Virus record (IMG/VR): IMGVR_UViG_3300045020_000042
Coordinates: 1-57,355 of that record
Length of the DNA: 57,355 nt
Strand: one strand, 5' to 3'
DNA from: a virus
Below the pieces are notes generated by a model. The model had not been told where the DNA came from and ran no database searches. It worked only from the letters and a program-made list of their open reading frames with translations. Numbering within the stretch: the first letter of the stretch is position 1; each line of letters opens with the position of its first letter. This document shows positions 14,360 to 57,355 of the stretch, one piece after another. A program made the position numbers and the translations under genes.

Positions 14360-15755
14360 CCCGGGGCTGGGGAAGACGAGCGTCACGTACGGCGCGCTGA
14401 AGCTGATGTTCAAACGGCAACTCGTCAGCAAGGTCCTGATCATCGCCCCGCTGCGCGTCTGTCACCTGGTCTGGCCGAAGGAGCAGCAGAAGTGGATGGA
14501 CTTCGCGGAGCTGCGTGTCGTCGTCCTGCACGGCGCGAAGAAGGACGAACTGCTGAAGCAGGACGCCGACATCTACGTGATCAACCCCGAGGGCCTCGAC
14601 TGGCTGCTCGACACGCACAAGACGAAGACGCCGAAGGGCAAGACGAAGGTCGAGGTCGACCTGCGGCGCTGGCGGCTCTTGGGGTTCGATACGCTCATCA
14701 TCGATGAGCTGAGCAAGTTCAAGCATGTATCGACGAACCGCTTCAAGGCGCTGAAGCTCGTGTTGCACACCTTCGGCCGCCGCTGGGGCCTGACCGGGAG
14801 CCCGGCCGCGAACGGGCTGCTCGACCTGTTCGGGCAGTGCTACATCCTCGACCAGGGGCGGAGCCTCGGGCCGTTCATCACTCACTACCGGAGCAAGTAC
14901 TTCGAGACCGTGGACAAGGAGGGGTTCGTCTGGGTCCCGAAGCCTGGCGCGGAGGAGGCGATCTACGAGCGTGTTGCGCCGCTGGCCCTTCGCATGGCTG
15001 CGGAGGACTACCTGGAGCTGCCGGAGCTCGTCCAGAACGTCGTCAAGCTCGATCTGCCGCCCGACGTCCGTAAGGTTTACGACCAGCTCGAGGAGGACCT
15101 TATAACGCGTCTTGACGAGGGCGTCGTCGTCGCGCAGAACGCGGCCGCGGCGTCGGTCAAGTGCCGGCAGGTCGCTAACGGAGGGATCTACCTGACGCCC
15201 GACCTCGAGATCACCGGGTTCAAGCTCCCGAAGGTCAAGCGGGAGTGGGTGAACCTGCACACGGTCAAGGTCGACGCGCTGGCCGACCTGATCGACGAAC
15301 TCCAGGGGTCGCCGCTGCTCGTTGCGTACGACTTTGAGCACGACCTCGACCGGCTCCGGGTCAAGCTGGGAACCGATCTGCCGTACATCGGCGGCGGCGT
15401 CAGCACGACCCGGAGCAAGGAGCTCGAGCGCCTCTGGAACGCGGGGAAGCTGCCCGTCCTCGCGGCGCACCCGCAGGCGATCGCGCACGGGCTGAACCTC
15501 CAGGAGCTGGGGAACCACGTCTGCTGGCACTCGATGACGTTCGACTATGAGCTGTACGACCAGTTCATCCGGCGCGTGCTTCGGCAGGGGAACAAAGCGA
15601 AACGGGTCTTCGTCCACCACCTGCTGATGAGAAACACCGTAGATGAGGTGATGCTGCTTGCGGTGAAACGGAAGGCGAAGGGCCAGAACGCGCTGTTTGA
15701 AGCGCTCCAGCTCTTGGCGCGCCACCGCAAAAAAGGTGTTTACATCGACCAGTGA
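14175..15755 (+). CDS. Snf2/SF2-type DNA helicase
   Basis: 526 residues. Motif I is LDPGLGKTSVT (Walker A), motif II is IIDELSK (DExx-type) and motif III is LTGSPAANG. The C-terminal half carries the second RecA domain, with GLNLQ and QFIRRVLRQG near the motif V/VI region. It is a double-stranded DNA translocase likely to work with the VRR-NUC nuclease whose gene it overlaps. The start ATG 14175 with AAGAGG is the first plausible one. Confidence 0.88.
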   Translation: MTSRSTTIANPRSKRSSKESSEPVITPEELFKPQPQKWAPHAYQKKAVKFLIEHACAALFLDPGLGKTSVTYGALKLMFKRQLVSKVLIIAPLRVCHLVWPKEQQKWMDFAELRVVVLHGAKKDELLKQDADIYVINPEGLDWLLDTHKTKTPKGKTKVEVDLRRWRLLGFDTLIIDELSKFKHVSTNRFKALKLVLHTFGRRWGLTGSPAANGLLDLFGQCYILDQGRSLGPFITHYRSKYFETVDKEGFVWVPKPGAEEAIYERVAPLALRMAAEDYLELPELVQNVVKLDLPPDVRKVYDQLEEDLITRLDEGVVVAQNAAAASVKCRQVANGGIYLTPDLEITGFKLPKVKREWVNLHTVKVDALADLIDELQGSPLLVAYDFEHDLDRLRVKLGTDLPYIGGGVSTTRSKELERLWNAGKLPVLAAHPQAIAHGLNLQELGNHVCWHSMTFDYELYDQFIRRVLRQGNKAKRVFVHHLLMRNTVDEVMLLAVKRKAKGQNALFEALQLLARHRKKGVYIDQ

Positions 15756-49203: not shown

Positions 49204-49635
49204 AAGTCTGTAATCATAATGTAATCTTATGGAATGTGGTTTTGTTCCTTTGGCAAAATTTCCCCAGGCAAAATTTTTTGCGTTTGCTGTCGCGGTTTTA
49301 GTTCCTGGCGCGCAGAGCCAGGTGCGCACCATTGGACAGCCGGCACACGACGAGCAGAGCGCCGGGCACCAGGTACTACGCACTACGAACAACAGTGAAG
49401 TACTACGCACCACGTATCATCGTCGTCGCGACGCGTATGGACTGATAGCAGATATTACGTAAAGTCGCGCCGGTCGGCTGCCGTGTGCCGAGCGCTCAGC
49501 GCCGGGCTCGATGCTCTCACTCGAGAACGTTCGACGTCGTATGATACATGGTGATATGGTGCGGTGTGGTACGTGGGTGGCTGTGGAAATCTGGAGATTA
49601 GGGCCTAGCACCGAGCCCAACGGTGTTGTGTGACA

Positions 49636-49697
49636 TTATAACATCTCATTGTGATCATTTGTTCAATCACGAAACATTTGCTCATGAGATGTTATAA
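49636..49697. repeat. 14-bp A/T-rich inverted repeat with nested hairpin
   Basis: TTATAACATCTCAT (49636-49649) and ATGAGATGTTATAA (49684-49697) are perfect inverted repeats around a 34-base loop. The loop holds a nested GTGAT/ATCAC (49651-49655/49666-49670). GAAACATT occurs in the loop and again near 49730. A protein-binding or origin element is plausible. Confidence 0.75.
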
Positions 49698-49888
49698 CAT
49701 AACAAAGTTGTGAATCCGTCTCACAATATGAAACATTCAGAATCACGCCTGTGACGACCATGACGATGTGTCCATACGTTGATATCAACCCGGTCACAAA
49801 CGTGATAGAGACGCGCTACGTGAGTCTAAGCATGTGCGATCGGCCGGCGCGTGAACGATCGACGTCGAACGGTGACTCACACTGGTAC

Positions 49889-49946
49889 AAGACATAGATA
49901 TCTTCACACGTATAATTCACACTAACGCGTGTGTGCACGATATAAT
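49889..49946 (+). promoter_or_regulatory. Putative rightward early promoters (two -10 boxes)
   Basis: TATAAT occurs at 49911-49916 with AAGACA 16 bases upstream, and again at 49941-49946. The segment after the second, TAATCTAG, also follows the promoter at 55381. A CACAC/GTGTG inverted repeat between the two could be an operator. They lie about 55 bases upstream of the first rightward small gene. Confidence 0.5.
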
Positions 49947-50000
49947 GTAATCTAGTTCGGCGCACCACGCGGCGAACACGGCTGAGAACGGAGATTGGAA

Positions 50001-50159
50001 ATGCTCGGATACCACGCTCAATGGATTATCTGTTTGATCGAACGTCGCGCTGCTGCACTGGCACGCGGTGAAAACCACGCAGCACGTTTGATCGAAAACA
50101 AACTACGTCGCACGGTTCGTTCGATGTTTAACGACGACGATCAAATATCATACGATTAA
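50001..50159 (+). CDS. First small rightward early gene
   Basis: 52 residues from ATG 50001 (GGAG upstream). Basic and Arg/Ala-rich, ending in acidic DDD. Stop at 50157-50159, directly before the first hammerhead. Function unknown. Confidence 0.6.
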   Translation: MLGYHAQWIICLIERRAAALARGENHAARLIENKLRRTVRSMFNDDDQISYD

Positions 50160-50161
50160 CA

Positions 50162-50215
50162 GATCGAAACGTCGCGCGAGCGGCGTTCGTACGTTACGCG
50201 TACGCTGATGAGATC
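50162..50215 (+). ncRNA. Type II hammerhead ribozyme, copy 1
   Basis: Order: GATC (50162-50165, helix II) / GAAA (50166-50169) / helix III ACGTCGC-GCGA-GCGGCGT / T50187 (H17) / helix I CGTACG-TTACG-CGTACG / CTGATGA (50205-50211) / GATC (50212-50215). All invariant core bases are present. The cut is predicted after 50187. Downstream lie CTGAGGAC and the next start. The transcript would be left with helix I at its 5' end. Confidence 0.9.
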
Positions 50216-50235
50216 AACCGCTGAGGACAAAAATC

Positions 50236-50556
50236 ATGGCAAAGTTTAACTTCAAGAAGTTCAACGAACAAGAGCGCGTTGCGCTCGAACGCGCTCGCGA
50301 GAATCATCCCGGCGAGTTCTATGTTGAGATCGACTTCGCAACCGGACAGACTGACGGCGCACCGAACGACGAGACGAAAGAAATCACGCAGTATTTCGCA
50401 GCGCGCGGTCTCGACTCCGAGATCATTACGTTGAATGGTCCCGGCGGCGGTTGGCCGTCCGTGTTCGTCGTCGGAACGTTCGACAAAATTACCGCGTGGG
50501 CAAACAGCGCGGAATGGAAAGATTCAATTGATCTTGGTTTTATCAAGCCGCTGTAA
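50236..50556 (+). CDS. Hypothetical early protein
   Basis: 106 residues with an acidic, mixed alpha/beta composition (FVVGTFDKITAWAN). Preceded by the first hammerhead leader and a CTGAGGAC box. Its leader is almost the same as that of the next gene, so the two are probably expressed with the same timing. Function unknown. Confidence 0.7.
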   Translation: MAKFNFKKFNEQERVALERARENHPGEFYVEIDFATGQTDGAPNDETKEITQYFAARGLDSEIITLNGPGGGWPSVFVVGTFDKITAWANSAEWKDSIDLGFIKPL

Positions 50557-50565
50557 ACCAGACCA

Positions 50566-50619
50566 GATCGAAACGTCGCGCGAGCGGCGTCCGTACGTTA
50601 CGCGTACGCTGATGAGATC
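50566..50619 (+). ncRNA. Type II hammerhead ribozyme, copy 2
   Basis: The 54-nt core is identical to copy 1 except C50591 at H17 (T in copy 1). Core: GATC 50566-50569, GAAA 50570-50573, helix III to 50590 with GCGA loop, helix I 50592-50608, CTGATGA 50609-50615, GATC 50616-50619. Predicted cut after 50591. The preceding gene ends 9 bases upstream, so the cut separates it from the next message. Confidence 0.9.
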
Positions 50620-50636
50620 AACCGCTGAGGACAATC

Positions 50637-50843
50637 ATGAAAATCACGCAAATCAAGTTTGAAGTTCCGTCTGAGCAGATCGACGCAATTGAAGAACTGC
50701 TTGGTAATGAATGCGCGTTGTACGACACGTCGCTCGGCGCAGCGCTCGATAACAACGTTTTCACTGTAACTCTGCACTTCGACCCAAATATGGTCGATCG
50801 CGATACGATCAACAGTTTGCTCGACGCGATCGAATCCGTTTAA
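50637..50843 (+). CDS. Hypothetical early protein
   Basis: 68 residues, acidic with a predicted alpha/beta fold. Preceded by the second hammerhead leader and CTGAGGAC. Function unknown. Confidence 0.7.
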   Translation: MKITQIKFEVPSEQIDAIEELLGNECALYDTSLGAALDNNVFTVTLHFDPNMVDRDTINSLLDAIESV

Positions 50844-50918
50844 CCCAGATCGAAACGCACTATACGGGCAAACCGCTAGCTCCCGATTGCTACCGCTTTT
50901 ACGCTTGAGGACAGAATC

Positions 50919-51222: not shown

Positions 51223-51287
51223 CTTTATTACGATTCAAGATTTACATATTTTTGTACATAAGTTAGCACACCTCGTACTTCACACTA

Positions 51288-51293
51288 TACAAT
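51288..51293 (+). promoter_or_regulatory. Possible promoter -10 box for the downstream gene
   Basis: TACAAT with TATACAATGTAATC context, similar to the -10 contexts at 49941 and 55381. A convincing -35 is not visible. The A/T-rich 51223-51423 holds no gene. Confidence 0.35.
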
Positions 51294-51423
51294 GTAATCA
51301 CTGCAGTCTAACACGCCGCAGCAACGGAAATGGAAATCAAAGCTAGACGTCGTTGATGACGCTGCTGTACCAGGACCGGCACTCGTAACTGACTTTCTAA
51401 CTTTCTCGTATTGGAGATTTATC

Positions 51424-57071: not shown

Positions 57072-57269
57072 ATGCAACGCGCCGGGGAAAGCCCGGTCAG
57101 GTCGAAAAGGTCGGGAGGACCTTCGCAGCGTGAGGCGCTGCCTGATGAGACCCTAACCGAGGTGCCGCATGGCCCGACTGATCAAGGTATCAAAGCTGCA
57201 GGCCCAGATGCTGAGTCGTGTCGGCGTCGCCACGGTCCGCGTAACTCGTATTCAACCCGTAACAGCTGA
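57072..57269 (+). CDS. Possible leader ORF containing the hammerhead
   Basis: 65 codons from an ATG with a strong GGAGG box seven bases upstream. The ORF runs through the ribozyme. Translation would unfold it, so the reading frame may regulate cleavage rather than make a protein. No recognisable protein features. Confidence 0.3.
   Translation: MQRAGESPVRSKRSGGPSQREALPDETLTEVPHGPTDQGIKAAGPDAESCRRRHGPRNSYSTRNS
57095..57158 (+). ncRNA. Type II hammerhead ribozyme, copy 3 (genome junction)
   Basis: Core: GGTC (57100-57103, helix II) / GAAA (57104-57107) / helix III AAGGTC-GGGAG-GACCTT / C57124 (H17) / helix I GCAGCG-TGAGG-CGCTGC / CTGATGA (57142-57148) / GACC (57149-57152); an outer GGT/ACC extends helix II. 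Its helices differ in sequence from the other two copies but the core is the same. The cut is predicted after 57124. It is absent from the left end of the contig. Confidence 0.9.
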
Positions 57270-57355
57270 GGACGAAATGGAAGACAAATCAAAGCAGCCA
57301 GTGGTAACCGTATCTGCGCCACCCCAGGTGGAAAATCCACGCGCCCAGCGCCGCG
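57169..57355 (+). CDS. 5' part of the first early gene (long form), truncated by the contig end
   Basis: ATG 57169 has GAGGTG upstream and is in frame with the gene at 147-563 (via 57277). The N-terminal extension of 36 residues, basic and hydrophobic, precedes the shorter alternative start that follows CTGAGGAC. The sequence continues at base 226 after circularisation. Confidence 0.55.
   Translation, partial: MARLIKVSKLQAQMLSRVGVATVRVTRIQPVTAEDEMEDKSKQPVVTVSAPPQVENPRAQRR

What the first reader, a model, noticed from the sequence alone, without database searches (positions are those of the whole stretch)
50162..50619. Two near-identical hammerhead ribozymes differing only at the cleavage-site base
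Both leaders fold as complete type II hammerheads with every invariant core base. Over the 54-nt ribozymes the only difference is T50187 versus C50591, which falls at H17, the one core position where A, C or U is tolerated. This is what selection for ribozyme function would leave, although one difference is a small sample. The second copy cuts between two early genes, so each small gene would be released as its own 5'-OH message that begins with helix I, just before the CTGAGGAC ribosome-binding box.
Basis: partly seen in the sequence, partly recalled or inferred. Interest (0 to 1): 0.92.

Follow-up and report, generated by a model that had tools for sequence, protein, structure and literature searches.

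The report
Self-cutting ribozymes between phage genes
This phage carries three small self-cutting RNAs (type II hammerhead ribozymes), two of them near-identical, just upstream of small genes; hundreds of other phages carry the same element fitted tightly between one gene's stop codon and the next gene's ribosome-binding site, so it most likely chops the phage's long messages into single-gene messages.

Summary
The 71-nt repeats at 50160-50230 and 50564-50634 differ at one base (T50187/C50591). Each folds as a type II hammerhead with every core base, and both are strong hits (54.5 and 59.1 bits, E ~1e-12) to a covariance model built from other phages. Rfam's Hammerhead_II is the best Rfam match (20.4 bits) but below its cut-off (37). 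1500 shuffled windows gave no such motif. A survey of IMG/VR contigs gave 254 relatives with compensatory covariation in all three helices. They sit flush after the upstream stop codon (median gap 1 nt) and about 27 nt before the next ATG, in front of unrelated small genes. This fits intercistronic processing of phage mRNA, proposed for phage hammerheads in 2011. Possibly new: relatives' 3' tails tend to pair with the catalytic core, so the cut product may refold and lock cleavage. Cleavage itself was not tested.

The parts
50162..50215 (+). Ribozyme copy 1, type II hammerhead: helix II GATC 50162-50165 with GATC 50212-50215; GAA 50166-50168; helix III 50169-50175 with 50180-50186; H17 = T50187; helix I 50188-50193 with 50199-50204; CTGATGA 50205-50211
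   Evidence: R1 covariance model 54.5 bits, E 3.5e-12; RNAfold minimum-energy fold; Rfam Hammerhead_II 20.4 bits
50187..50188 (+). Predicted self-cleavage site of copy 1 (GUU cut)
   Evidence: Position of H17 by homology; T here in only 2 of 236 dereplicated relatives; cleavage not tested
50222..50229 (+). CTGAGGAC ribosome-binding box of copy 1's gene
   Evidence: Sequence; inside the 71-nt repeat
50001..50159 (+). Upstream small gene, 52 aa, stop TAA 50157-50159, two bases before ribozyme copy 1
   Evidence: ORF with GGAG upstream; no family match for the longer mechanical ORF 49995-50159
50236..50556 (+). Gene between the two ribozymes, 106 aa
   Evidence: ORF; PHROG 5922, unknown function, E 7e-7
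50566..50619 (+). Ribozyme copy 2, identical to copy 1 except H17 = C50591; starts 9 nt after the stop of the 106-aa gene
   Evidence: R1 59.1 bits, E 2.1e-13
50591..50592 (+). Predicted self-cleavage site of copy 2 (GUC cut)
   Evidence: Homology; cleavage not tested
50626..50633 (+). CTGAGGAC ribosome-binding box of copy 2's gene
   Evidence: Sequence
50637..50843 (+). Gene downstream of ribozyme copy 2, 68 aa
   Evidence: ORF; no family match
50845..50918 (+). Third leader of the run: same outer flanks (CCAGATCGAAACG, TGAGGACA), no ribozyme; possibly a degenerate copy
   Evidence: filter-off R1 search finds no significant hit there
57100..57152 (+). Third ribozyme, sequence-distinct: helix II GGTC/GACC, helix III AAGGTC/GACCTT, H17 = C57124, helix I GCAGCG/CGCTGC, cut predicted 57124/57125
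   Evidence: R1 53.0 bits, E 8.9e-12; descriptor; Rfam does not report it
57169..57355 (+). ORF starting 16 nt after the third ribozyme, open to the end of the window
   Evidence: Sequence, translation

Best explanation
These are genuine type II hammerhead ribozymes used as intercistronic mRNA processing elements. As RNA polymerase reads through the run of small phage genes, each element folds and cuts its transcript once, between H17 and helix I. The upstream message keeps its stop codon and ends in hairpin III with a 2',3'-cyclic phosphate; the downstream message starts with hairpin I and a 5'-OH, followed by an intact ribosome-binding site. Because in type II hammerheads helices I and III are both closed hairpins on either side of the cut, both new ends are hairpin-capped, which should slow 5'-end-dependent decay (RNase E/RppH) and 3' exonucleases and give each small gene a standard leader. 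Shown: motif, covariation, placement between genes. Inferred: cleavage, end protection, effect on expression. Copy 1 (GUU) is predicted to cut more slowly than copy 2 (GUC).
For: Model hits and shuffles. 243 dereplicated relatives: helix I 99.6-100% paired at all six pairs with all four Watson-Crick types; helix II, not required by the descriptor, 95-98% paired in 137 non-GATC members with many pair types; the 46-sequence alignment gives a covariation score of 0.95 against 0.19 shuffled and about 0.1 slid (members were chosen for pairing, so the unselected helix II is the cleaner test). Placement: 227 of 254 have an ATG with an ORF of 30 aa or more 4-45 nt after the core, against 23% of random positions; upstream stop to ribozyme gap median 1 nt (quartiles -1 to 3); core to ATG median 27 nt (quartiles 23-31). 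Downstream proteins fall into 182 clusters out of 223, so the element is gene-independent. Up to nine copies at successive genes in one contig (L143). Published: phage/prophage type II hammerheads flank single genes; a triple array cuts in vivo in E. coli; in another phage the 5' end of the early transcript maps within 3 nt of a hammerhead-variant cut (PMC3088659).
Against: No cleavage was tested here. Rfam's Hammerhead_II cut-off is not reached. Predicted ribosome-binding-site accessibility is the same before and after cutting (0.637 and 0.642), so cutting does not act by exposing that site. 79 of 80 relatives chosen by terminase, including the closest (77% identity), show no such ribozyme in the fetched DNA, so the element is accessory. 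The third leader in the same run has none. The third ribozyme overlaps a possible short ORF starting at 57072 rather than following a stop codon closely.
Confidence: 0.8

Rival explanations
1. The elements cut, but their purpose is regulation of translation: uncut and cut forms differ in access to the ribosome-binding site, so the ribozyme is a switch, perhaps controlled by a ligand or by folding competition between tail and core.
For: Nearly always just upstream of a start codon; tails of relatives tend to be complementary to the core CTGAN, which could compete with the ribozyme fold.
Against: Predicted site accessibility does not change on cutting; no conserved aptamer-like extension seen; the element starts flush with the upstream stop codon, which a leader switch would not need.
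Confidence: 0.12
2. Cleaved ends serve RNA circularisation or ligation (2',3'-cyclic phosphate with 5'-OH), giving circular mRNAs or RNAs between two neighbouring ribozymes.
For: Two ribozymes flanking one gene at 404-nt spacing; end chemistry suits RtcB-type ligases; circular RNA is the role of hammerheads in viroids and retrozymes (PMC7761336).
Against: Many loci show a single copy (145 of 185, though fragments are short); Perreault et al. looked for spliced or circular products of clustered phage hammerheads and found none (PMC3088659).
Confidence: 0.04
3. Copy 1 or both are decaying or inactive remnants; the near-identity is only a recent duplication of a leader.
For: Near-identity runs on into the ribosome-binding site (71 nt); H17 = T is rare and costs 4.6 bits; the third leader looks like a degenerate copy.
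Against: All other core bases and every pair are intact in three elements, one of them of unrelated helix sequence.
Confidence: 0.1
4. A chance inverted-repeat-rich DNA element (promoter, terminator or protein-binding site) that merely resembles a hammerhead.
For: GC-rich palindromes CGTACG and GATC; fold energy is not unusual for the composition.
Against: Zero full motifs in 1500 shuffles; 254 relatives covary while the single-stranded core is invariant, which a DNA site would not show.
Confidence: 0.01

Closest known systems
Type II hammerhead ribozymes of bacteria and phages (Rfam RF02276 Hammerhead_II; Perreault et al. 2011, PMC3088659)
   Same: Topology open at helix II, all core bases, clusters flanking single genes in (pro)phage genomes, proposed cutting of long phage transcripts into single-gene mRNAs.
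   Different: Helix II is a fixed 4 bp, almost always preceded by A and usually followed by A; the helix I hairpin is 17 nt with a GUNA-type loop (the length was part of the descriptor, but nearly all clean hits of the first, length-free search also had it); no signal for the loop I-tail pseudoknot that most described type II members have; scores below the Rfam cut-off.
Hammerheads in Agrobacterium prophage (ardA triple array) and phage PaP3 (PMC3088659)
   Same: Hammerheads between small phage genes; activity shown in vitro and, for the triple array, in E. coli.
   Different: Different phages and genes; no homology beyond the motif was tested.
RiboJ genetic insulator (sTRSV hammerhead plus hairpin; PMC6206723)
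   Same: Hammerhead just before a ribosome-binding site leaves every gene with the same hairpin-tipped leader; in E. coli RiboJ raises transcript level about twofold.
   Different: Synthetic part made from a plant satellite RNA ribozyme; placed after a promoter, not between genes.
RNase III processing of T7 early mRNA (general knowledge)
   Same: Cuts a long phage early transcript between genes and leaves hairpin ends.
   Different: Protein enzyme of the host, not self-cleavage; 5'-phosphate instead of 5'-OH.

Membership tests
Hammerhead ribozyme (type II) | Core C3 U4 G5 A6 N7 G8 A9, G12 A13 A14, A15.1-U16.1, H17 | tested here: met
   All three window elements
Hammerhead ribozyme (type II) | Three helices around the core, I and III closed by loops, II open | tested here: met
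   RNAfold for the two copies; R1 alignments for all three
Hammerhead ribozyme (type II) | Compensatory covariation of the helices with an invariant core across relatives | tested here: met
   helix II is the unselected test
Hammerhead ribozyme (type II) | Score above the Rfam Hammerhead_II gathering cut-off (37 bits) | tested here: not met
   20.4 bits, third element not reported; an unambiguous relative scores 28.8 and none of 13 relative-bearing loci passes, so the cut-off misses this subgroup. This is a detection threshold, not a biochemical defining feature
Hammerhead ribozyme (type II) | Self-cleavage 3' of H17 giving 2',3'-cyclic phosphate and 5'-OH | not testable with these tools
   Needs transcription and cleavage mapping
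Pseudoknotted type II subclass (Perreault 2011) | Pairing of 4 bp or more between loop I and the tail after helix II | tested here: not met
   Loop I-tail longest run 3.12 against 3.17 with tails permuted among sequences; window copies allow at most GUU/AAC, 3 bp (by eye)
Intercistronic phage hammerheads | Between co-directional genes, just upstream of a start codon | tested here: met
   Copies 1 and 2: stop 2 and 9 nt before, ATG 20 and 17 nt after; family-wide. Third element: ATG 16 nt after, upstream stop not adjacent
Natural RiboJ-like insulator | Cleavage standardises the leader and changes expression | not testable with these tools
   Architecture matches; function needs reporters

The most novel reading that the evidence does not exclude
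A phage-wide, gene-independent punctuation module 'stop codon - 4-bp-helix-II type II hammerhead - ribosome-binding site - start codon', in which the tail after helix II is selected to re-pair with the catalytic core (CUGAN with N'UCAG) once the RNA is cut, locking the cleaved state and adding a second hairpin to the 5'-OH leader.
Probability: 0.3. Interest if true: 0.7.

Novelty: new member of a known kind. Interest (0 to 1): 0.5.

Why it matters
The role of prokaryotic hammerheads is stated to be an open question (PMC6155905). The geometry found here (flush with the upstream stop codon, about 27 nt before the next ATG, unrelated genes, up to nine in one contig) makes one role, cutting polycistronic phage mRNA into single-gene messages with two hairpin-capped ends, directly testable. 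It also shows that Rfam's type II model overlooks a common phage subgroup, and it offers natural counterparts of the RiboJ insulator.

Tried and rejected
Loop I-tail pseudoknot: no signal. Ribosome-binding-site unmasking by cutting: no predicted change. Selection signature from the single H17 difference: rejected. Ribozyme in the third leader 50845-50918: none. Close DNA relatives in GenBank phages: none; an attempt to find cultured phages with a common relative ribozyme gave only hits of 18-26 nt at E ~7. Relatives of the 106-aa protein in IMG/VR: none. Synteny: 80 terminase relatives give ribozymes in only one contig, L326 (four copies with a longer helix I loop); the closest long relative L253 shares the primase but none of the small genes. 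Weak R1 hit at 15594-15633 (14.5 bits, E 0.13) judged chance because helix II is unpaired. Of the 254 descriptor hits five have no contiguous helix II; four of these show a one-base shift and one, L142 at 11571, looks like chance.

Full report
OBSERVATION. The two leaders are a 71-nt direct repeat with one mismatch. Each has every hammerhead core base in type II order: helix II strand GATC, GAA, helix III hairpin, T-H17, helix I hairpin, CTGATGA, helix II strand GATC. RNAfold's minimum-energy structure of each isolated element is this junction. Rfam at its gathering cut-off reports nothing in the window, but with a short query Hammerhead_II is the best match, 20.4 bits, E 0.019.

BETTER TEST. 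A second scan that leaves helix II free but fixes a 17-nt helix I hairpin also reached its limit. Together 254 distinct hammerhead-like elements in 185 loci were parsed. The 17-nt length was part of the parsing descriptor, but in the first scan, where it was free, all but one of the 105 cleanly parsed elements also had it (the exception, L118, looks like a chance match). In 243 dereplicated elements helix I is 99.6-100% paired at six pairs with all four Watson-Crick types; helix III pairs 1-5 are 98-100%. Helix II was not required by the parser; in the 137 members not fixed by the GATC query it is 95-98% paired with GGTC/GACC, GGAC/GTCC, GGCC/GGCC, GACC/GGTC, AGTC/GACT and others. A gap-free alignment of 46 gives a covariation score of 0.953 against 0.19 in shuffles and about 0.1 in slid controls (its members were selected for pairing).

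A covariance model from those 46 (window sequences excluded) finds three elements in the window: 59.1, 54.5 and 53.0 bits, E 2e-13 to 9e-12; the next hit is 14.5 bits. The third, at 57100-57152, has a different helix I, helix III and a changed helix II (GGTC/GACC), and lies 16 nt before an ATG. In 1500 dinucleotide shuffles of the window no motif with a helix II of 3 bp or more occurred.

PLACEMENT. Of 254 elements 227 have an ATG opening an ORF of at least 30 aa 4-45 nt after the core, against 23% of random same-strand positions; the median distance is 27 nt. An upstream ORF stop lies within the searched range for 90% (35% random) and its median gap to the ribozyme is 1 nt; the commonest value is -1, where the last base of the stop codon (as in TAG) is the first base of helix II. 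Most leaders carry a Shine-Dalgarno-like box. The 223 downstream proteins fall into 182 clusters, median about 99 aa. So the ribozyme fills the gap between two genes whatever they encode. Some contigs carry one at gene after gene: nine in L143, seven in L081, six in L125. The strict GATC pattern gave 21 stretches in 257 billion bases of bacterial and archaeal genomes, and the parser accepts only elements in one Pyrinomonadaceae bin, so the subgroup is essentially viral.

In the window copy 1 starts two bases after the stop of a 52-aa ORF and ends 20 nt before the ATG of the 106-aa gene; copy 2 starts nine bases after that gene's stop and ends 17 nt before the ATG of the 68-aa gene. These genes have no known function. 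They lie between a terminase/portal block on the other strand and a primase-like gene on the same strand. The closest long terminase relative has the primase but neither the small genes nor the ribozymes: the cassette is accessory.

MECHANISM. Cutting between H17 and helix I leaves the upstream coding sequence with its stop codon and a 3' hairpin III, and the downstream one with hairpin I at its 5' end and its ribosome-binding site. Only the type II permutation puts a closed hairpin on both sides of the cut; this may be why it suits gene borders (inference). Predicted ribosome-binding-site accessibility is unchanged by cutting (0.637 and 0.642), which argues for end definition and stability rather than unmasking. 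RiboJ, an engineered hammerhead insulator, raises transcript levels about twofold in E. coli (PMC6206723), a precedent for the effect.

H17. In relatives H17 is C 217, A 17, T 2, and the T lowers copy 1's score by 4.6 bits. GUC and GUA have the greatest intrinsic rates (PMC3138052), though GUU can be cleaved (PMC9217987). The difference is therefore more likely slightly harmful or tuning than neutral, and the near-identity over 71 nt, ribosome-binding box included, is what a recent duplication gives.

SIDE RESULT. There is no loop I-tail pseudoknot signal in this subgroup. Instead tails after helix II are enriched in TCAG (24 of 129 non-GATC members against 3.5 expected from shuffled tails, maximum 10), the base before it tends to match core N7 (N7 T with A 16:2, N7 C with G 4:1, one per locus, Fisher p 0.008), and the folded 3' product pairs its core with the tail more than with shuffled tails (0.75 against 0.48 for GATC members; 0.48 against 0.37 for others). 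Relatedness was only roughly controlled. The product may refold so that cutting is not reversed. In the window copies this pairing is weak by eye (UGAU/AUCA).

KNOWN OR NEW. Perreault et al. [quoted passage not shown] The window elements are new members of that kind. What I did not find described in the open library is the precise stop-ribozyme-start geometry, the 4-bp/17-nt subgroup missed by Rfam's cut-off, and the tail-core pairing; most subscription papers and that paper's supplementary alignments could not be read, so these may be known.

Noticed in passing
window 57100-57152 (+): A third type II hammerhead with unrelated helix sequences, 53.0 bits, just before an ORF at 57169; it overlaps a mechanical ORF at 57072-57269 that has a GGAGG upstream.
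   Followed up: yes
window 50845-50918 (+): Leader of the 65-aa gene shares the outer 13 nt and the TGAGGACA box with the ribozyme leaders but has no ribozyme; perhaps a degenerate or replaced copy.
   Followed up: partly
L081, L179, L194, L128, L144 and others, tail after helix II: Tails carry ATCAG or GTCAG complementary to core CTGAT or CTGAC, matching N7; a possible product-locking hairpin.
   Followed up: partly
L143, L081, L125: Contigs with nine, seven and six type II hammerheads at gene after gene; good material for 5'-OH mapping.
   Followed up: partly
L326 10618-11934 (-): Four hammerheads with a longer helix I loop and a shorter helix II in one array near a distantly related terminase; perhaps the pseudoknotted subclass.
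   Followed up: no
window 49629-49704: 21-nt inverted repeat (86% complementary, 34 nt apart) upstream of the small-gene run; possible operator or other regulatory site.
   Followed up: no
window 49936-49952 and 51283-51299: Similar 17-nt TATAAT-like elements (CACGATATAATGTAATC / CACTATACAATGTAATC), with similar 12-nt TTCACACTA elements a short way upstream, at both ends of the small-gene run; possible repeated phage promoters.
   Followed up: no
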